Assembly (NCBI GenBank): GCA_020725555.1
Contig: DYEU01000034.1
Span: 124,001-188,000, forward strand
Direction of reading: 5' to 3'
Source: Desulfatibacillum sp.
Lineage (GTDB): Bacteria; Desulfobacterota; Desulfobacteria; Desulfobacterales; SpSt-501
DNA length: 64,000 nucleotides
Positions 52,604-64,000 of this stretch are shown one piece after another. Under the pieces are notes generated by a model that saw nothing but the letters and a program-made list of their open reading frames with translations, did no database searches and was not told the origin of the DNA. Within the stretch, counting starts at the first letter, position 1; every line of letters starts with the position of its first letter. A program made the translations under genes and the position numbers.

Positions 52604-53590
52604 GTGTACGCCTCCCGCTACGGGCTCGCACGCGAGCCCTTCAGCATCCAGCCCGACCCCGCCTTCCTGTGGCTGAGCGCGAAGCACGGCGAGGCGCTCG
52701 CGACGCTGAAGGAGGGGATCCTCGAGCGCGACGGGCCGGTCGTCGTGACCGGCGACATCGGCACGGGCAAGACGACCCTCATCCGCCATCTCGTCCGCCT
52801 GGACGAGGTGGCGGCGATCTTCGTCACGGTTCACGACCCCGATCTGACACCGCTCGACTTCCTCAATCTCCTCGCCGTCGAGTTCGGCATCGAGGGCCGC
52901 TTCGAGAGCCGGGAGGCGTTTTCCGCGCGGCTGCGGCATTTCCTGCTCGAGGCCTTCTCCTCCTACCGCAAGGTCCTCGTCATCATCGACGAGGCCCAGC
53001 GGCTGAACGCGGAGCTCCTGCGCGAGGCGATCGACCTCGCCCGGCTCGAGCTCGCCGGCCGCCGCATGCTCAAGGTCTTCTTCCTGGGGCAGCTCGAGTT
53101 CGACCGGCTGCTCGCCCGGGAGGAAAACCGCGATCTACTCGCCGCCGTGAGCGCCTACTACCGCCTTGAGCCCTTCACGGCCGAGGAGACCCGCACCTAC
53201 ATCGGGCACCGGCTCGCCGTCGCCGGCCGCAGCGCGCCGCTCTTCACCGACGAGGCCCTGGCCGAGATCCACCGCCTCACGCGCGGCGTTCCCCGGCTGA
53301 TCAACATCCTCTGCGGCCACGCCCTGCTCTACGGCTTCGGCGCCGACCGGGACACGATCGGCCTCGACACCGTCCGCGAGTGCACGCGCGACCTCACGGT
53401 CGCACTCGAGCTCGAGGAGGGCGCGGAGGAGGCCGCGCCGCCGGACCCCTCGCCCGTCGCGCAGGCGATCGCCGCGCGCCGCGCCGCGGCCCTACCCGCG
53501 GGGCGGGGCCGAAGAAGAAGGCTTCTTCTGGTTACCGCGATCGCGCTCTCGGCCCTGGCCTTGGCCGCCCTCGGCATCGCCCTGCGGTGA
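52604..53590 (+). CDS. ExeA/GspA-type AAA ATPase with C-terminal membrane anchor
   Basis: A 328-residue ATPase starting 'YASRYGLAREPFSIQPDPAF', the ExeA family entry motif. Walker A 'GDIGTGKTTL' (about 49-58), Walker B 'LVIIDEAQRL', and 'LTRGVPRLINILCGHALLYG'. A single C-terminal membrane helix (about 303-326) and an Arg-rich segment follow, but no peptidoglycan-binding domain. GTG start. The last 99 bases overlap the RNA methyltransferase gene on the other strand. Confidence 0.92.
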   Translation: MYASRYGLAREPFSIQPDPAFLWLSAKHGEALATLKEGILERDGPVVVTGDIGTGKTTLIRHLVRLDEVAAIFVTVHDPDLTPLDFLNLLAVEFGIEGRFESREAFSARLRHFLLEAFSSYRKVLVIIDEAQRLNAELLREAIDLARLELAGRRMLKVFFLGQLEFDRLLAREENRDLLAAVSAYYRLEPFTAEETRTYIGHRLAVAGRSAPLFTDEALAEIHRLTRGVPRLINILCGHALLYGFGADRDTIGLDTVRECTRDLTVALELEEGAEEAAPPDPSPVAQAIAARRAAALPAGRGRRRRLLLVTAIALSALALAALGIALR

Positions 53591-55452: not shown

Positions 55453-55504
55453 CCGGCGAAAGACGGCGCGCGGCGGAAACGAGCGCGCCGCAGGCCGATT
55501 CCCC

Positions 55505-56866
55505 ATGTTCCTCGAGCGCTTCGGATTCCAAGAGCATCCCTTCCCGGACGGCCCCGACCCCGCCTGCCTCTTCGTCGGCCGGACCCAGGAAGAGGCGCTG
55601 GCCCACCTGCGCTACGCCGTCTCCGAGGGCGAGGGGTTCTCGGTGATCACGGGCGAGCCCGGCGTGGGGAAGACCACCCTTTGCCGCGCCTTCGCCGGCC
55701 GCCTGCAGGGGGAGCACGAGGCGGCCCTCCTCTCCGGCCCGCTGCGCACCCCGGCCGAGTTCCTCTCCGCCCTCAACCGGCAACTCGGGGTTGCGGCACC
55801 CTCGGCCCGCGCCGGCGACCAGACCGGCGCCCTGAACCGCTTTCTCATGGAGCGGAAGATCGCCGGCCGCCGGGTCGTGGTGCTCATCGACAACGCCCAG
55901 GATCTTCCGCCCGCGGTCCTCGAGCAGGTGCGCCTGCTCTCCAACCTGGAAACCACGCGCGACAAGCTCATCCTCATCGTGTTGATCGGGGACCCCGGAC
56001 TCGAGGCGCTGCTCCACTCGCCGAAGCTCCGCCAGATGGGGCAGCGCGTCTCGGTCGCCTGCACGCTCGGCCCGCTCGACGAGCAGGAAACCGGCGCCTA
56101 CATCGCGCACAAGCTCGCCTGCCGGCCCCCCCGGGTCCCGCTCAGCTTCCCGGCCGAGGCCGTGCACTGGGTGTTCCGCTCCTCGGGCGGGATCCCGGCC
56201 AAGGTGAACCAGGCCTGCACGGCCGTGCTGAACGCGGTCTGCCAAGCGGGCCTCCCCGCCGTGGGGGGCGAGATGGCCCGCGCGGCGCTCTTCGGGCCGC
56301 CCCCGGCGCCGCAGGCGTTTTTGCGCAAGGCCGCGGCCCACCTGGGAGGCGGGAGGCCCTTCGCGGCGGCTTTCGCGGCGGCCGGGGTGCTGGCGCTCGG
56401 CGTTCTTTTTTTCTCGCTTCACGGCGGGCAGCCGACGTTGCCGGCGGGGGACGCCGCCGTGGTCAAGGCGCTCCCGGAGGAGGAAACAAGGGCTGCGGAG
56501 GAAGGCGTGTGGACCGCCGCCTCCCCTGCGGAGAACCCCGGGCCGCACCCCGCCGATGCCGCGCGCGTTGGGACCGAGGCCCGGGGACCGTCCTCTCCGC
56601 CTTCGGCCGCGGCGGCTTCCGGGTTGTCCTGGTCGGTCCAGGTCGGGGCGTTCCTTCAGCCGGAAAACGCCCGCCGGGCCGCCTCCGAGCTCTCGGGCCG
56701 CGGCTGGCCTGCGCGCATTTCCGTTTTCCGCGACGGCAAGGGCCGAACCTGGCACACGGTGCGCATCGGCGACCATGCCGATCGCGGCAAGGCCGAGGCC
56801 CAGGCCGAGGAATTTCTGCGCCGCGAGGGAAAACCCGTCGTGGTGCGACCCTACGGTGCGCTGTAG
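55505..56866 (+). CDS. ExeA-type AAA ATPase with SPOR domain
   Basis: A 453-residue protein. It opens 'FLERFGFQEHPFPDGPDPAC' (ExeA family), Walker A 'GEPGVGKTTL' (about 52-61). Walker B reads 'VVVLIDNAQDL' with Asn130 in place of the usual catalytic Glu, so ATP hydrolysis may be lost. A membrane helix (about 293-313) is followed by a periplasmic Pro/Ala linker and a C-terminal SPOR domain (about 378-453, 'WSVQVGAFLQPENARRAASE'), which binds denuded peptidoglycan at the septum. Confidence 0.93.
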   Translation: MFLERFGFQEHPFPDGPDPACLFVGRTQEEALAHLRYAVSEGEGFSVITGEPGVGKTTLCRAFAGRLQGEHEAALLSGPLRTPAEFLSALNRQLGVAAPSARAGDQTGALNRFLMERKIAGRRVVVLIDNAQDLPPAVLEQVRLLSNLETTRDKLILIVLIGDPGLEALLHSPKLRQMGQRVSVACTLGPLDEQETGAYIAHKLACRPPRVPLSFPAEAVHWVFRSSGGIPAKVNQACTAVLNAVCQAGLPAVGGEMARAALFGPPPAPQAFLRKAAAHLGGGRPFAAAFAAAGVLALGVLFFSLHGGQPTLPAGDAAVVKALPEEETRAAEEGVWTAASPAENPGPHPADAARVGTEARGPSSPPSAAAASGLSWSVQVGAFLQPENARRAASELSGRGWPARISVFRDGKGRTWHTVRIGDHADRGKAEAQAEEFLRREGKPVVVRPYGAL

Positions 56867-57593: not shown

Positions 57594-58586
57594 ATGAAGC
57601 AAATCGTCCTTTCCTACCTGGACGGCCTGCGGGCCGGAGAGGCGCAGCGACACGAAAACCTGGTGATGGTGCCGCTGCTTTCCGATGTTGACGACGGGCT
57701 GGGGTATATCACCCTGGCCGAGGCGCTCGCTGCGGGGCAAATCGAGATCCGCGAGGTGAGCGAGGCGGGTTCGGTGCCGGAGCTTCGCGTGGTGAACCGC
57801 GCCGAAAATCCGGTCCTCATCCTGGACGGGGAGGAACTCGTCGGCGCAAAGCAAAACCGCGTCGTGAACACCACGATCCTCGTCCCGGCGCGCTCCGAGA
57901 TCGTCATTCCGGTCAGCTGCGTCGAGCAGGGCCGATGGTCCTACAGCGGCAAGCTCTTCCGGACCACCTCCCGCGTGCTCAACTCCCAGGCCCGAAGCAT
58001 TAAGGCCCATACCGTCTACGCGTGCCTGCTATCCCAGGGCACCTTCCGCGCCGACCAGGGGGCGATCTGGGCCGGGGTCGAGCGGCTTGCGGAGATGCAC
58101 GACGCGGTTTCCCCCAGCATGGACCTGGACTTCGTCTATCAAAAAAAGGCGCCCGCCCTGGAGGACTATGCAAGCCGCCTTGCCCCTTGCGCGCGCCAGG
58201 TCGGCGCGGCCTTCCTCGCCGGTGGCCGCTTCATGGGGGTCGACGCCTTCGGCCGGGAAGGGACCTTGCGGAAGGTGTTCAAGGGCCTTGTGGAAAGCTA
58301 TGCCCTCGACGCCCTGTCTGCGGAAAAAACGGAGGAACCCCCGGGCGCCGCAGAGGAGAAGGTCAAGGCCCTGCTCGAGGAAGCCAAAGCCGCACCGTTC
58401 GAGGAGCGCCCTTCGGTGGGCCTGGGAACCGATCTGCGCCTGCAGACCGGGAACCTGACCGGCTTTGCCCTGGGGCACGAGGGAAAGCTTGTGCATCTTG
58501 TGCTTTTCCCCCGGGACGAAAGCAGCAAAAGCTTCGCGTCGGGTTTCTTCCTGAGGCCTTCGCTTCGCCGGCGGCGGTACCGGTGA
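57594..58586 (+). CDS. ARPP-1 domain (DUF6569-like) protein
   Basis: A 330-residue protein. Signature stretches: 'YITLAEALAAGQIEIREVSE', 'GSVPELRVVNRAENPVLILD', 'GEELVGAKQNRVVNTTILVP', 'ARSEIVIPVSCVEQGRW'. This is the ARG-and-rhodanese-phosphatase-associated protein domain, predicted by genomic context in the literature to act in ADP-ribose or nucleotide-related systems. Its role is not proven. Start has AAGGAGG 7 bases upstream. Confidence 0.83.
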   Translation: MKQIVLSYLDGLRAGEAQRHENLVMVPLLSDVDDGLGYITLAEALAAGQIEIREVSEAGSVPELRVVNRAENPVLILDGEELVGAKQNRVVNTTILVPARSEIVIPVSCVEQGRWSYSGKLFRTTSRVLNSQARSIKAHTVYACLLSQGTFRADQGAIWAGVERLAEMHDAVSPSMDLDFVYQKKAPALEDYASRLAPCARQVGAAFLAGGRFMGVDAFGREGTLRKVFKGLVESYALDALSAEKTEEPPGAAEEKVKALLEEAKAAPFEERPSVGLGTDLRLQTGNLTGFALGHEGKLVHLVLFPRDESSKSFASGFFLRPSLRRRRYR

Positions 58587-59854: not shown

Positions 59855-59883
59855 TTGATTCGCCACGGGAGATTTTTTATTCT
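59855..59883 (+). promoter_or_regulatory. sigma-70 promoter of the terminal ATPase/FtsK operon
   Basis: TTGATT (59855-59860), 17 bases, TATTCT (59878-59883). The region is AT-rich for this genome (GATTTTTTATT). The ATG at 59955 lies about 65 bases downstream of the predicted start. Confidence 0.65.
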
Positions 59884-59954
59884 GCCGGGGCGTCACCCCG
59901 AGCCCTGGCCTGAACCCCTTTTCCTCAACCTGCCGTTCGCTGTGGGAGGCGCCG

Positions 59955-60710
59955 ATGGCATCCCGGAACCCCGCCGCTGCGCGCGCGGCGGTTTTGGAGC
60001 GGCTCAAGGCGGCCGGCCCTGCGGGGCTCGCCAAGGGAAAACTCCTCGAGCGCCTCGGCTCCCGCGGCGAGGAGGCCCTCAAGGCCCTTCTGGCCGCGGG
60101 TGGCGTCGCCAACCTGGGAACCCGAAGTCGCCCCCGTTTCGTTCTGCCCGAGCATTTCCGCCCCCTCGAGCGCGCCTGCGAGCACATCGAGAAAAAAGCC
60201 CTCGGGCCCAAGGCGGCCGCGGAGGGGGCGCTTGCGCTGTTCACCCGCGAGGAGCTGACCCGCGGCCTGACCGGCGAGCCGAAGAAGAAGATCCCGGAAG
60301 CCTTCGCGCGGCTTTTTTCCGAGGCCCGGCTTTTGCGCTGCAAGAGGGGCCGGAACCTCTATCTCATCCACCGCGAGCACCTGCGCCATCTTGTCGCCCG
60401 GGAGGGCCGCACGGAGCCTCACCGGGCGCCCGCGCCGTACCCGCCGGTCGTTTGCGAGCGCGAGGCGGTTCTTTCCGCCTACCGCCGGCTCAGGGAAAAA
60501 AGCGGCTTCAGCCACGTCGAGATCGCCGCTCTCGCGCGCGAGGCCGGCTGCCCGCTTGCCCCCCTCAAGGAGTTCATCCTCTCCGAGAGCCGCGCGGGGA
60601 GGGCCGTCCTGGGCCTGGGCGACTGGTCGCTTTCCACGGAGGAGACCCGGGCCGGGGCCGTCGAGCTTCTCGGCCGGCCCCATCTCCTCGTTTCCTTCGA
60701 AACCGGGTAG
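59955..60710 (+). CDS. Winged-helix-like protein of the terminal operon
   Basis: A 251-residue protein of small helical repeats that looks like tandem winged helices: 'AAVLERLKAAGPAGLAKGKL', 'LFTREELTRGLTGEPKKKIP' then 'LYLIHREHLRHLV', and 'REKSGFSHVEIAALAREAGC'. No catalytic motif. It has a Shine-Dalgarno GGGAGG and is 7 bases before the ATPase gene. I do not know the family; DNA-binding is an inference from the wHTH-like pattern. Confidence 0.7.
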   Translation: MASRNPAAARAAVLERLKAAGPAGLAKGKLLERLGSRGEEALKALLAAGGVANLGTRSRPRFVLPEHFRPLERACEHIEKKALGPKAAAEGALALFTREELTRGLTGEPKKKIPEAFARLFSEARLLRCKRGRNLYLIHREHLRHLVAREGRTEPHRAPAPYPPVVCEREAVLSAYRRLREKSGFSHVEIAALAREAGCPLAPLKEFILSESRAGRAVLGLGDWSLSTEETRAGAVELLGRPHLLVSFETG

Positions 60711-60717
60711 GCGGACG

Positions 60718-62769
60718 ATGATCGCGAACCCCTTCGAGCAGGCCATCGTGACCGAGCCGCGGCGCGTTTCGGCCTCGGTTCCGGGGTTGAACGAAGAGCC
60801 CCTCGAGCGCCTGTTGCAGCTGGTGGAGGCGCTTTGCGGGGCGGGGCTGCCGCGGGACGCACGCTCCCCGGGGGCGCGCCTGCTCGTGTCCCCTGCTCCC
60901 GGCTATGGCAAGTCCCACCTCATCGGCCGTCTCTTCGGCCGCCTCGAGGGCCGGGCGACCCTGGTCTACCTCAGGCCCTACACGAACCCCGCCTCCTGCT
61001 GGCGCTCGATCCTCACCAAGACCGTGCAGGAGATGGAATTCCCCGAATCCGCAGGCGCCTCGCCCCTCGAGGCGGAGACCCAGCTCGAGGCCTTTATTCA
61101 CGGCGTCCTGGTCCGGATGGCGGTGAACGGCCTGCGCCGGGGGGTGATCGCCAGCCGCGATCCGCAAACCCTCATCGCCTACCTCGAGGGCGCCTGCGCC
61201 GCGGAGCTTTGCGCCAACGAGACCTGGAAGAGCCTCCTGCGGCGGCGGAGCGGAGCCTTCGCCGAGCTGCTCAGGCGGCAGCTCCATGAGCGCGGCCTCC
61301 ACCTCCGCGCATCCCCGGCGGGCTGGCTGCACGTGCTCGTCCACTTCGCCTACGGCGGCCGGGACCGGCCGGAGCTGCGCCGGGCCTGCCTCGACTGGCT
61401 CAAGGCCTCCGGCGTGGACGACGAGGAAGCCCAGGCGATCGGCCTTCCGCCCGCCGACCGGCCCCCCTGGGACCTCGCCGGCGAGCAGGCCGAGGAGCTG
61501 GCGCGGGCCCGCCTCGCCGATCTCTGCATGCTGGCCGGCTTCTTCCGCCCCTTCGTCTTCTGCTTCGATCAGACCGAGAACTACGCCGCCACCCCCGAGC
61601 TTGCGGCAAGCCTCGGCCTGGTGGTGGAGGGGCTGACCGCGGAGTGCGTCAACCAGCTGACCCTCCTCACGGCGAACCTGACCCCTTGGGTGAACGGCGT
61701 TCTCCCCCACTGGCAGGATGCCCACAAGGACCGCATCGTGAAACCCTACCTCGAGCTCAAAGGGGTCAACCGCGGCCAGGCGGCCGAGCTGGTCCGGCTG
61801 AGGCTCGCGGCCTCCGGCGCCCCCGAGGCGATCGCCGCGCGCCTGGTCGAGGACGCCTTTCTCGAGCGGTTTTTCGCCGAAACCTCCTTCCTCAACGTCC
61901 GGGACTTCCTGCGGCGCTGCGGCGAGCGTTTCGAGGAGCTTGCGCGGCGGCCGGATGAGCCGCGGCGGAAGCCCAAAGAACCCGCGGTCGAGGAGTTCTA
62001 TCGCGCCCGCCTCGAGAAGATCCGCGCCCAGCCGCGGCGCCGCGTCTTCAACCCCGATGCGCTCTTCTGGTTCGTGAAACACACGGCACCCGAGGGCTGC
62101 AGGCCCCTCCAGACCCGGAGCCGCTATCTTCTGCACGGCTGGGAGCGGGGGGGAAGAAAGGTCTATTTTGGCCTGGAGGCGGGCCACCACCCCAGGCGCT
62201 GGCAGGCGATCGTGAGGGAGGGCGAAGCGTTGAACGCCGCAGCCCCCGGCTGCAAGCTCGTCTTCTTCCGCACCCCGGACCTGCGGCCGGTCCCCGGCGC
62301 GCGCTGGAAAACCGCCTCCGCCATTCAGGCCGCGCGCGGCGCCTTTCTCCACCTGTTCCCCCTCGACCCCGAGGAGCTCAGCCGGGTCTATGCCGCCCAC
62401 GACCTCCACCTCGACGCCGTGGAAGGCGACATCCCGCTTTCCCTGGAGGAGGCGACCGCGTTTGTCAAAGCCGAGCTCCGCCCCCTCTGGGAGCGCGTGC
62501 TCGATCCGGCGCCCGAGAATTGGGGCGCCCCGGGGCCGCCCGCCGCGGCGGAGCCGGCCGCCAAGGAGCCGGGCTCTTCCCTCAAGGCGCGGCTGCGCGA
62601 GCTTCTGCGCCGCGAAAAATTCCTCAGCCTCCAGGAGACCCTCGAGCGCCTCCATCCGCCCGCGACCCCCGAGGAGATCCACAGCGCCCGGGCCGCGATC
62701 CCCGAGATCCAGGCCTACGACGGACCGCGGATGACCGTCTTTCAATGGCGTCCCGGCCGGAAGGGCTGA
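60718..62769 (+). CDS. Large P-loop ATPase of unknown system (BREX/PglY-like layout)
   Basis: A 683-residue protein. The P-loop is 'SPAPGYGKSHLIGRLFGRLE' with Lys65 and the Walker B is 'PFVFCFDQTENYA' with Asp284. This GxGKSH plus FDQxE style is seen in large ATPases of phage-defence systems. The C-terminal third ('KVYFGLEAGHHPRRWQAIVR', 'KLVFFRTPDLRPVPGARWKT') is unassigned and may be a nuclease-like or protein-interaction domain. Operon spacing is 7 bases upstream and 10 downstream. Function is inferred from context only. Confidence 0.75.
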   Translation: MIANPFEQAIVTEPRRVSASVPGLNEEPLERLLQLVEALCGAGLPRDARSPGARLLVSPAPGYGKSHLIGRLFGRLEGRATLVYLRPYTNPASCWRSILTKTVQEMEFPESAGASPLEAETQLEAFIHGVLVRMAVNGLRRGVIASRDPQTLIAYLEGACAAELCANETWKSLLRRRSGAFAELLRRQLHERGLHLRASPAGWLHVLVHFAYGGRDRPELRRACLDWLKASGVDDEEAQAIGLPPADRPPWDLAGEQAEELARARLADLCMLAGFFRPFVFCFDQTENYAATPELAASLGLVVEGLTAECVNQLTLLTANLTPWVNGVLPHWQDAHKDRIVKPYLELKGVNRGQAAELVRLRLAASGAPEAIAARLVEDAFLERFFAETSFLNVRDFLRRCGERFEELARRPDEPRRKPKEPAVEEFYRARLEKIRAQPRRRVFNPDALFWFVKHTAPEGCRPLQTRSRYLLHGWERGGRKVYFGLEAGHHPRRWQAIVREGEALNAAAPGCKLVFFRTPDLRPVPGARWKTASAIQAARGAFLHLFPLDPEELSRVYAAHDLHLDAVEGDIPLSLEEATAFVKAELRPLWERVLDPAPENWGAPGPPAAAEPAAKEPGSSLKARLRELLRREKFLSLQETLERLHPPATPEEIHSARAAIPEIQAYDGPRMTVFQWRPGRKG

Positions 62770-62779
62770 AGAGGGGGCC

Positions 62780-64000
62780 ATGGAGGCGATCGGCGTATCC
62801 GCCCTCTGCCGGGCCTGCCTCGACCCCGCCTTCCGCGAGCGGCTGGCCGCGGGGGAGAACCCTCCCACGCGGCACTTCACCCCGCCCGGCGAGATCCCCC
62901 GCTACGGCCGCCTCTTCCACAACCTGGTTGAGCGCTACACGGACTGGCTCGCCGAAAGGGAGGAGGCCGAAGCGGAGAGCGATCCCCTCGCGCTCTGGGG
63001 GCAGCTCTACGAGCGGTTCGCCGCACGGCGGCTCGAGCGGATCTGCCGCGGCGGCAAAACCGATTCGGCCTGGCATCTCGCCTCCGCCCTCAAGGCCTTC
63101 TGCGCGCATCTGACCGCGCTGCGGCGGGAGCGGAACCCGCGGGGCGGCTGGCGCGGGCTTTTCCTTGCCAGCGAGGTTCCCCTCCAGGCGATCCCCGTCC
63201 CCGCGGGCCGCCGCACGGTATGGCTCTCCGGGAAGGTCGACGCCGTGCGCGCCCTGCCCGATGGCGCGCTCGAAATCGTCGACTACAAGCTGACCCGCGG
63301 CGAGCGCATGAAGCAGGATCTCCTCCAGCTCGCGATCTACGCCCGCATGCTCGGGATCGCCAACCCCGGCCGCCCCTGCGAGGGCGTTCTCGAGTACTAC
63401 GAGCCCGGCCTCGAGGAGGTGAGGGCTGCGGCGAAAGATCTCGAGGCGATGTTCGAGGACGTCGTCTCCCCGGTCCTGGAGCGCCTCGCCGGCGGGCCCC
63501 CCGCACCGCGGGCGCCGGACGCTTCGCCTGCCGGGGCAGGGGCCGTGCCGCAACCGGGGGATCACTCCGCCGCCATCCGGGATGGCTACTTGCGCTTCGG
63601 CCTTGCGGTCGAGGTGACCGGGAGGCGCGAGGCGCCCCAGCTTGTGCGCTACGAGGTCAAACCCGGACCCGGGGTCAAGGTCGCCGCGCTCGCAAGCCGC
63701 GCCGAGGACCTGAAAGTCGCGCTTTCCCTTCCGCTTCTCCCCGTGATCGCCGCCGGCGCGGGCCGGGTCACGATCGACATCCCCCGGGAGCGGCCGCTTC
63801 CCGTTTTCTGGCGCGAGGTCGTGGAATCCCCCGAGGTCCGGGGGCACGCCGGCCCGGTCGCCTTTCCCGTGGGGGTGGGGATCGAGGGCCGGCCGATCGT
63901 CTGCGACCTCGCCGACCCCAACACCTGCCATGCCCTGGTCGCCGGTGCGGCCGGGGCCGGCAAAAGCGAGCTCCTGAAAAGCATCGTCGCCACGCTCGCG
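62780..64000 (+). CDS. RecB-type nuclease fused to an FtsK/SpoIIIE translocase (3' end missing)
   Basis: An open frame of 407 codons to the window edge. N-terminal half: RecB/Cas4-type PD-(D/E)XK nuclease with His in 'RLFHNLVERY', Asp154 in 'SGKVDAVRALPDG', Glu165/Asp168/Lys170 in 'EIVDYKLT' and 'DLLQLAIYARML'. From about residue 275, FtsK alpha/beta-domain hallmarks: 'VRYEVKPGPGVKVAALASRA', 'VTIDIPRERPLPVFWREVVE', 'HALVAGAAGAGKSELLKSIV' with Walker A Lys395. This is the FtsK, not the HerA, form. A nuclease and a DNA translocase in one chain suggest directed DNA cleavage. It follows the ATPase by 10 bases. Confidence 0.88.
   Translation, partial: MEAIGVSALCRACLDPAFRERLAAGENPPTRHFTPPGEIPRYGRLFHNLVERYTDWLAEREEAEAESDPLALWGQLYERFAARRLERICRGGKTDSAWHLASALKAFCAHLTALRRERNPRGGWRGLFLASEVPLQAIPVPAGRRTVWLSGKVDAVRALPDGALEIVDYKLTRGERMKQDLLQLAIYARMLGIANPGRPCEGVLEYYEPGLEEVRAAAKDLEAMFEDVVSPVLERLAGGPPAPRAPDASPAGAGAVPQPGDHSAAIRDGYLRFGLAVEVTGRREAPQLVRYEVKPGPGVKVAALASRAEDLKVALSLPLLPVIAAGAGRVTIDIPRERPLPVFWREVVESPEVRGHAGPVAFPVGVGIEGRPIVCDLADPNTCHALVAGAAGAGKSELLKSIVATLA

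What the first reader, a model, noticed from the sequence alone, without database searches (positions are those of the whole stretch)
59855..64000. Operon of winged-helix protein, P-loop ATPase and RecB-nuclease/FtsK fusion: candidate uncharacterised DNA-defence system
Seen: three tightly spaced genes (gaps of 7 and 10 bases) behind one promoter. The last fuses an apparently active RecB-type nuclease (D154, E165, D168, K170) to the FtsK alpha/beta and motor domains. The middle gene is a large ATPase with GYGKSH and FDQTE motifs. Known: nuclease plus HerA/FtsK pairs and large ATPases occur in anti-phage and plasmid-exclusion systems. Inferred: this set recognises and degrades foreign DNA. I know no named system with this exact order and fusion.
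Basis: partly seen in the sequence, partly recalled or inferred. Interest (0 to 1): 0.78.

Follow-up and report, generated by a model that had tools for sequence, protein, structure and literature searches.

The report
Nuclease-motor DNA-capture operon, predicted defence
Three linked bacterial genes make a DNA-binding protein, a loader-type ATPase and a DNA-pumping motor fused to a nuclease; the set recurs in other bacteria and closely fits a published but, as far as I saw, untested class of predicted anti-invader DNA-capture systems.

Summary
The operon is real. A protein with three predicted winged helices, an ATPase and a nuclease-FtsK fusion lie 7 and 10 bases apart; past the window a fourth gene (DUF2130) follows after 12 bases. 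AlphaFold and fold searches make the ATPase an Orc/Cdc6-type AAA+ protein with a predicted C-terminal winged helix and, before it, a restriction-enzyme-like region without the catalytic motif. The third protein joins a RecB/Cas4-type nuclease to an FtsK alpha domain and motor; H, D, D/E, K, Q, Y residues are kept in all 7 aligned homologues. The trio is contiguous in 8 genomes of the phylum (7 with an FtsK motor, one with a TrwB/HerA-type motor); ATPase and nuclease-FtsK adjoin on a conjugative cyanobacterial plasmid. It is rare: nuclease in 6 of 395 genomes, own included. This closely matches the Orc/CDC6 branch of 'HerA/FtsK capture systems' predicted in 2024 (PMC10853773). Most likely the winged-helix and Orc/Cdc6 proteins place the complex on invading DNA and the motor feeds it to the nuclease. 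Nothing here shows this experimentally. RecB-type nuclease, DUF2130 and caspase partners are not mentioned in that paper's main text.

The parts
59955..60710 (+). 251-aa DNA-binding-type protein; predicted as three winged-helix domains (about residues 2-67, 67-141, 166-251)
   Evidence: ORF; AlphaFold2 model pLDDT 83.5, pTM 0.45; best matches are winged helices, SelB array Z 9.3, rmsd 9.1, 166 aligned; profile built on 15 relatives matches 7 trio loci that trained it and G134, which did not, at 6.5e-9
60718..62769 (+). 683-aa Orc/Cdc6-type AAA+ ATPase: AAA+ core about 60718-61968, restriction-enzyme-like region about 62053-62424, C-terminal winged helix about 62581-62748 (the last two from secondary structure)
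   Evidence: AlphaFold2 pLDDT 84.4, pTM 0.77; Orc/Cdc6 at Z 14.3-13.2, TnsC 13.9; Foldseek top hit BrxC E 6.8e-4; family alignment of 18; [DE]xK in 1 of 18 rows in the strand concerned
62780..64000 (+). 608-aa nuclease-FtsK fusion, cut by the window (its stop lies 606 bases beyond): RecB/Cas4-type nuclease about 62780-63514, FtsK alpha about 63572-63784, motor from about 63815
   Evidence: PDDEXK_1 1.1e-13, FtsK_alpha 1.6e-8, FtsK_SpoIIIE 2.2e-38; phmmer to solved DNA translocase FtsK (2iuu) 5.2e-58; conserved residues
58751..59803 (+). 350-aa gene upstream, possibly part of the same block; looks PD-(D/E)XK-like by eye only; among the trio loci found only in this genome and its closest relative
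   Evidence: ORF; no Pfam, PADLOC or NCBIfam match up to E 1; 82% identical in L022/L024, no match in the other trio loci

Best explanation
An anti-invader DNA-degradation machine of the Orc/CDC6 branch of the predicted 'HerA/FtsK capture systems'. Proposed working: the triple winged-helix protein and the Orc/Cdc6 ATPase (with its own C-terminal winged helix and a dead restriction-enzyme-like region that may bind DNA) bind or encircle incoming plasmid or phage DNA and load the FtsK ring; the motor pumps the duplex to the N-terminal RecB/Cas4-type nuclease, which degrades it. DUF2130 here may be an added nuclease (inference). Shown: gene order, domains, conserved catalytic residues, recurrence, patchiness, one plasmid copy, exchange of the motor in two genomes. 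Inferred: complex formation, target choice, degradation, and defence itself.
For: Domain make-up fits the published class: Orc/Cdc6-type AAA+, multi-winged-helix protein, FtsK with alpha domain plus nuclease, as described in PMC10853773. That paper reports motors taken from different sources; here G062 and G134 carry the same kind of nuclease and ATPase with a motor that matches TrwB (7.9e-13, 1.7e-9) and HerA DUF87 (1.3e-8, 9e-9) rather than FtsK (3.3e-5, 4.7e-5). Nuclease residues kept in 7 of 7 aligned. Trio contiguous in 8 genomes: G000, G003, G024, G030, G053, G083, G104, G134. All 6 of 395 phylum genomes with the nuclease (own included) also carry the ATPase family, 5 of them adjacent, while the ATPase is in 9 of 297. 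ATPase and adjoining nuclease-FtsK on a plasmid of Pseudanabaena typed conjugative. Within the genus 2 of 7 genomes have the ATPase, own included (three of the five without are 80-87% complete).
Against: No functional test. Trio loci inspected mostly sit beside housekeeping genes (ClpB, RuvABC/LigA, GroEL; names read by eye). The window's nuclease part has no match in phages; viral-contig scans gave no ATPase relative, and in the 80 FtsK loci kept of a capped list the nuclease model met no FtsK gene. For the window's trio PADLOC recognises only the FtsK and Cas4-like parts; relatives of the ATPase get weak mixed hits. The restriction-like region was judged by secondary structure, not by its own fold search. 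Self/non-self discrimination is unexplained: none of the four genes is a DNA-modification gene by the scans run, and the contig ends about 300 bases after DUF2130.
Confidence: 0.66

Rival explanations
1. A DNA-repair end-processing machine: the Orc/Cdc6-like protein loads the FtsK-nuclease at broken ends, which are resected as by AddAB/RecBCD or HerA-NurA.
For: The nuclease is of the AddB/RecB/Cas4 type; two of seven aligned homologues keep CPR and CxxCx5C cysteines typical of iron-sulphur nucleases (the Pseudanabaena one too, by eye); loci lie among ordinary genes, in G083 near ruvABC, radA and ligA by eye.
Against: Rare and patchy (6 of 395; 2 of 7 in the genus). Of 10 genomes with the nuclease-motor fusion, 4 have a RecB over the curated cut-off (G000, G003, G030, G050) and 3 more have long RecB pieces at contig ends (G062, G104, G134), so it is not a simple substitute there; G024, G053 and G083 show only weaker matches. 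A copy is on a plasmid.
Confidence: 0.17
2. A maintenance or transfer device of mobile elements (segregation, dimer resolution or incompatibility) domesticated on chromosomes.
For: FtsK and Orc/Cdc6-type ATPases serve segregation and replication (general knowledge); one copy on a plasmid typed conjugative; motors of TrwB coupling-protein type in two genomes; a ParA-like gene, by eye, near one pair-plus-caspase locus (L031).
Against: Most copies inspected are on contigs with chromosomal-looking genes (by eye); an active-looking nuclease does not suit maintenance of one's own replicon.
Confidence: 0.1
3. The winged-helix and Orc/Cdc6 pair is the real unit, a sensor that works with interchangeable effectors (nuclease-motor, caspase, others), and killing the cell rather than degrading DNA is the usual outcome.
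For: Pair without FtsK beside it in five loci (L028, L029, L030, L033, L035); a caspase gene follows the pair in G017 (249 bases) and G024 (40 bases); presence of the nuclease-motor needs 4 changes on the ATPase tree, 3 forced by supported branches.
Against: In the window's lineage ATPase and nuclease-FtsK stay together (G000, G003, G024), and only two caspase neighbours were seen.
Confidence: 0.07

Closest known systems
HerA/FtsK capture systems, Orc/CDC6 class (Rakesh, Aravind, Krishnan 2024, PMC10853773; abstract and sections 21, 22, 26 read whole)
   Same: Orc/Cdc6 AAA+ with an inactive restriction-enzyme-like domain before a C-terminal winged helix (here predicted); FtsK with FtsK alpha in one set and other motors in another; active nuclease; in a subset a further gene with 2-4 winged helices
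   Different: Their text names an AbiJ-type and a second, unnamed REase family and a 3'-5' exonuclease fusion, and has no RecB, Cas4, DUF2130 or caspase. Figure drawings and supplements were not available to me, so the unnamed family may be this one.
DndFGH and SspFGH phosphorothioate-linked restriction (SspH; PMC8092258, passages read)
   Same: FtsK-like C-terminal motor (SspH model matches P0003 265-603, 4.8e-56), Walker ATPase partner, three genes
   Different: SspH models are 1,400-1,766 positions and DndH about 1,700 residues with many other domains; here 608 aa, and the match is confined to the last 350 positions of the SspH model
BREX and BREX-related capture (BRC) systems (PMC12839542, abstract and passages read)
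   Same: BrxC is the top Foldseek match of the ATPase and BrxC_BrxD matches 3 of 18 relatives weakly (best 0.004); BRC joins an Orc/Cdc6 ATPase to HerA/FtsK
   Different: No PglZ, BrxA, BrxB, DUF6079 or DUF4007 match in the five proteins scanned
AddAB / RecBCD / Cas4 nucleases
   Same: Nuclease domain type and, in two of seven aligned homologues, iron-sulphur-type cysteines
   Different: Motor is FtsK, a duplex translocase, not an SF1 helicase
Cellular FtsK
   Same: Alpha and motor domains
   Different: A nuclease fills the N-terminal part and no gamma domain is found; G000 has a separate FtsK-like frame of 917 aa on C21

Membership tests
HerA/FtsK capture system, Orc/CDC6 class | Orc/Cdc6-family AAA+ ATPase | tested here: met
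   Model residues 1-417 align to Orc/Cdc6 at Z 14.3 (7jgr, rmsd 3.6, 241 aligned) and 13.6 (1fnn, rmsd 3.7, 244 aligned); TnsC 13.9 and general AAA+ (p97 12.5) are near, so the clade call rests on 1-2 Z units
HerA/FtsK capture system, Orc/CDC6 class | Inactive REase domain between AAA+ core and C-terminal winged helix | tested here: inconclusive
   Helix/strand order at 446-569 and 622-677 fits and [DE]xK is missing from the strand concerned in 17 of 18 rows, but the region was not folded and searched alone
HerA/FtsK capture system, Orc/CDC6 class | HerA/FtsK motor, in one set with FtsK alpha, drawn from different sources | tested here: met
   FtsK_SpoIIIE 2.2e-38, FtsK_alpha 1.6e-8 in P0003; TrwB/HerA-type motor in G062 and G134
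HerA/FtsK capture system, Orc/CDC6 class | Active REase, of one of two families | tested here: inconclusive
   Active-looking PD-(D/E)XK nuclease present; whether it is one of the paper's two families cannot be told from the text
HerA/FtsK capture system, Orc/CDC6 class | Further gene with 2-4 winged helices related to DndG (subset) | tested here: inconclusive
   Three winged helices predicted; relation to DndG itself not tested
SspFGH | SspH of about 1,400-1,766 aa | tested here: not met
   608 aa; SspH model PDLC02806 matched only at 1412-1762 of 1766
SspFGH | sspBCD modification genes nearby | not tested
   Only five neighbouring proteins were scanned, without an Ssp hit apart from the motor
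BREX / BRC | PglZ and BrxA/BrxB-like partners | tested here: inconclusive
   None among the five proteins scanned; the contig ends about 300 bases after DUF2130; in G003 the next three genes downstream give no informative Pfam match
AddAB/RecBCD | SF1 helicase fused or paired with the nuclease | tested here: not met
   Motor domain is FtsK; a full recB lies elsewhere in G000
Cellular FtsK | C-terminal gamma domain and N-terminal membrane part | tested here: not met
   No gamma match and a nuclease at the N-terminus (no membrane-segment prediction was run). On the tree the trio motors lie outside a supported group of 29 other FtsKs; one origin of the 9 trio rows is not rejected (p-AU 0.173)

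The most novel reading that the evidence does not exclude
A distinct variant in which a RecB/Cas4-type nuclease is fused directly to a captured FtsK (or TrwB/HerA-type) motor and loaded by a winged-helix/Orc-Cdc6 pair, making a translocating duplex-DNA nuclease for incoming DNA; the same pair serves elsewhere as a sensor with exchangeable effectors, including caspases.
Probability: 0.3. Interest if true: 0.62.

Novelty: new member of a known kind. Interest (0 to 1): 0.45.

Why it matters
HerA/FtsK capture by the Orc/CDC6 branch is a published prediction; I saw no experimental test of that branch among the papers listed, which were not exhaustive. This operon is a compact form with motor and nuclease in one chain and clear catalytic residues, so the idea (a DNA pump that feeds foreign DNA to a nuclease) can be tested by simple cloning and point mutants. 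It also shows the set in relatives of sulphate-reducing bacteria and on a cyanobacterial plasmid, and the same nuclease with a different motor.

Tried and rejected
Rejected: housekeeping FtsK; SspFGH/DndFGH proper (only the motor matches); simple RecBCD substitute. Cyanobacterial plasmid FtsKs H5-H17 match only the motor (40 of 877 records listed); of two inspected, one has a phage terminase gene nearby, the other mostly hypothetical genes. The Methylosinus plasmid holds a 226-aa ATPase fragment beside IS6 elements. The other plasmid searches with trio relatives gave no match. P0005 as a trio part: absent from the other trio loci. Empty-site comparison: in G001 and G002, whose sequence reaches that far, the ExeA/methyltransferase flank is kept while trio, P0005 and DUF2130 are missing; G004, G005 and G006 could not be judged. 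A cross-phylum genome survey could not be run. A first print of residue numbers read a gapped row and was replaced. My longest-ORF gene maps miss genes in G+C-rich loci; tblastn was used there. A profile search of solved structures with the ATPase family gave nothing below 0.027. One search held an awkward search phrase and listed no paper.

Full report
What is there. The window is G000:C32:124001-188000, and the contig goes on for 2,204 bases to 190204. On the plus strand lie a 251-aa gene (59955-60710), a 683-aa gene (60718-62769) and a 608-aa gene starting at 62780 that ends 606 bases past the window; gaps are 7 and 10 bases. A 427-aa gene with a DUF2130 domain (7.6e-64) follows 12 bases later. 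A 350-aa gene ends 151 bases upstream.

Third protein. Pfam finds PDDEXK_1 (1.1e-13), FtsK_alpha (1.6e-8) and FtsK_SpoIIIE (2.2e-38) and no gamma domain. That is the RecB/Cas4 pattern (pattern recalled; the Cas_Cas4 Pfam model matches the G083 protein at 1.4e-5). The G083 and G030 proteins also have CPR and CxxCx5C cysteines of the iron-sulphur type, the other five of the seven do not. Walker A (389-396) and D492-E493 are intact.

Second protein. For P0002 itself the libraries give only weak hits (AAA_16 at 0.019); relatives reach 2.1e-10 for AAA_16. An AlphaFold2 model (pLDDT 84.4) aligns over residues 1-417 to Orc/Cdc6 proteins at Z 14.3-13.2 and to TnsC at 13.9; general AAA+ proteins such as p97 follow at 12.5. 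Foldseek's best match is BrxC (6.8e-4). Residues 446-569 have a helix/strand order like a restriction-enzyme core, and [DE]xK is missing from the strand concerned in 17 of 18 relatives; residues 622-677 look like a winged helix. These two assignments rest on secondary structure.

First protein. The model (pLDDT 83.5, pTM 0.45) shows three winged helices; best matches are winged-helix arrays such as SelB (Z 9.3) and single winged-helix domains. Z values near 8-9 show a fold, not a family.

Conservation. A contiguous winged-helix/ATPase/nuclease-motor set occurs in G000, G003, G024, G030, G053, G083, G104 and G134; the first seven helped to train the winged-helix and nuclease models used, G134 did not. 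In G134 the contig ends inside the motor. In G134 and in G062 (ATPase end and nuclease-motor at a contig edge) the motor is not of the FtsK type: it matches TrwB (1.7e-9, 7.9e-13) and HerA DUF87 (9e-9, 1.3e-8) better than FtsK (4.7e-5, 3.3e-5). G050 has the winged-helix/ATPase pair 8.1 kb from the nuclease-FtsK. FtsK_alpha reaches its cut-off in G000, G083, G030, G024, G053 and Pseudanabaena, falls just short in G050 and is not found in G104, G062 and G134. On Pseudanabaena plasmid pPSE7367.01, typed conjugative, the ATPase (1.5e-46) and nuclease-FtsK (6.7e-28) adjoin a 266-aa gene in the winged-helix position that my winged-helix model did not recognise.

Surveys, the window's own genome counted: nuclease profile in 6 of 395 phylum genomes (E 1e-10); ATPase profile in 9 of 297 (E 1e-20); P0002 in 13 of 58 closer relatives (E 1e-3) and in 2 of 7 genomes of the genus, of which three lacking it are only 80-87% complete. 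DUF2130 is in the same 2 of 7 and in no other trio locus examined. The window's nuclease part has no match in the phage collection. Plasmid searches otherwise gave a Methylosinus fragment, no match, motor-only FtsKs among the 40 of 877 records listed and one weak Synechococcus ATPase.

Evolution. The motor tree has 40 rows: 9 trio, 27 from phylum genomes, 2 viral contigs, 2 cyanobacterial plasmids. The 27 and the viral two form a supported group without any trio row; the two plasmid FtsKs group with the Pseudanabaena trio motor. The 9 trio rows do not form one clade in the free tree, but one clade is not rejected (p-AU 0.173; long branches present; the G062 motor was too different to enter). 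On the ATPase tree, nuclease-motor presence needs 4 changes, at least 3 forced by supported branches. Both trees group G000/G003/G024 and G104/G053/G050; on the ATPase tree each group also takes in a relative without a seen FtsK. G083 and G030 pair on the motor tree and fall in one clade with pair-only ATPases.

Context. Five winged-helix/ATPase pairs have no FtsK beside them and two have a caspase gene after them. G104 has PADLOC candidate genes PDC-M21A/B and PDC-S05 about 2-4 kb off; the ClpB-like gene (name by eye) beside the G024 trio also scores PDC-M37B 3.8e-39, as AAA proteins may. Other loci lie among ordinary genes, read by eye. Ten genomes with the fusion were tested for RecB: 4 are over the cut-off, 3 have long pieces at contig ends, 3 have weaker matches only.

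Comparison with the known. Sections 22 and 26 of PMC10853773 (read whole) describe neighbourhoods with an Orc/CDC6 ATPase carrying an inactive REase before a C-terminal winged helix, an active REase, HerA/FtsK from different sources (one set with FtsK alpha) and, in a subset, a protein with 2-4 winged helices, and propose that they intercept invading DNA. PMC12839542 (abstract and passages) repeats this theme and adds BRC systems. This operon meets two tested features of that class and is unsettled in three. The main text of PMC10853773 has no RecB, Cas4, DUF2130 or caspase; its figures and supplements were not seen. My literature searches listed no paper on this exact fusion (one library of open papers).

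Verdict. A real, conserved operon; a probable new member of a predicted anti-invader class, with no experiment here. Defence is an inference.

Noticed in passing
L031 2452-6582; L027 772-4400: Winged-helix/Orc-Cdc6 pair followed by a caspase gene (Peptidase_C14 with a peptidoglycan-binding domain in L031), 249 and 40 bases after the ATPase.
   Followed up: partly
L162 1468-3504; L163 1-1455: The same kind of nuclease is fused to a TrwB/HerA-type motor instead of FtsK in G062 and G134.
   Followed up: partly
L026 996-3878: The G012 ATPase frame runs on into a histidine-kinase-like C-terminal half (HATPase_c 4.7e-5 in one member of A1, presumably this one) with a STAS-like small gene beside it (by eye).
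   Followed up: no
L179 4292-8429: Opposite-strand SWIM protein and helicase (matches DpdE 1e-129 and ZorD 2.2e-129 models) next to the plasmid trio.
   Followed up: partly
L186 6458-10424: Synechococcus plasmid: an AAA ATPase with a DEDDh-like N-terminus and weak likeness to the plasmid Orc/Cdc6 protein, followed by TIR and macro-domain genes.
   Followed up: no
window 52604-53590 and about 55500-56866: Two ExeA-like ATPase genes around a divergent rRNA-methyltransferase-like and a nitroreductase-like gene (names by eye); parts of the block are kept in G001 and G002 while the downstream trio is not.
   Followed up: partly
window 57594-58586: ARPP-1 domain protein (3.6e-94), shared with G003 (67%); of the five other genomes of the genus only G002 has a short match.
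   Followed up: no
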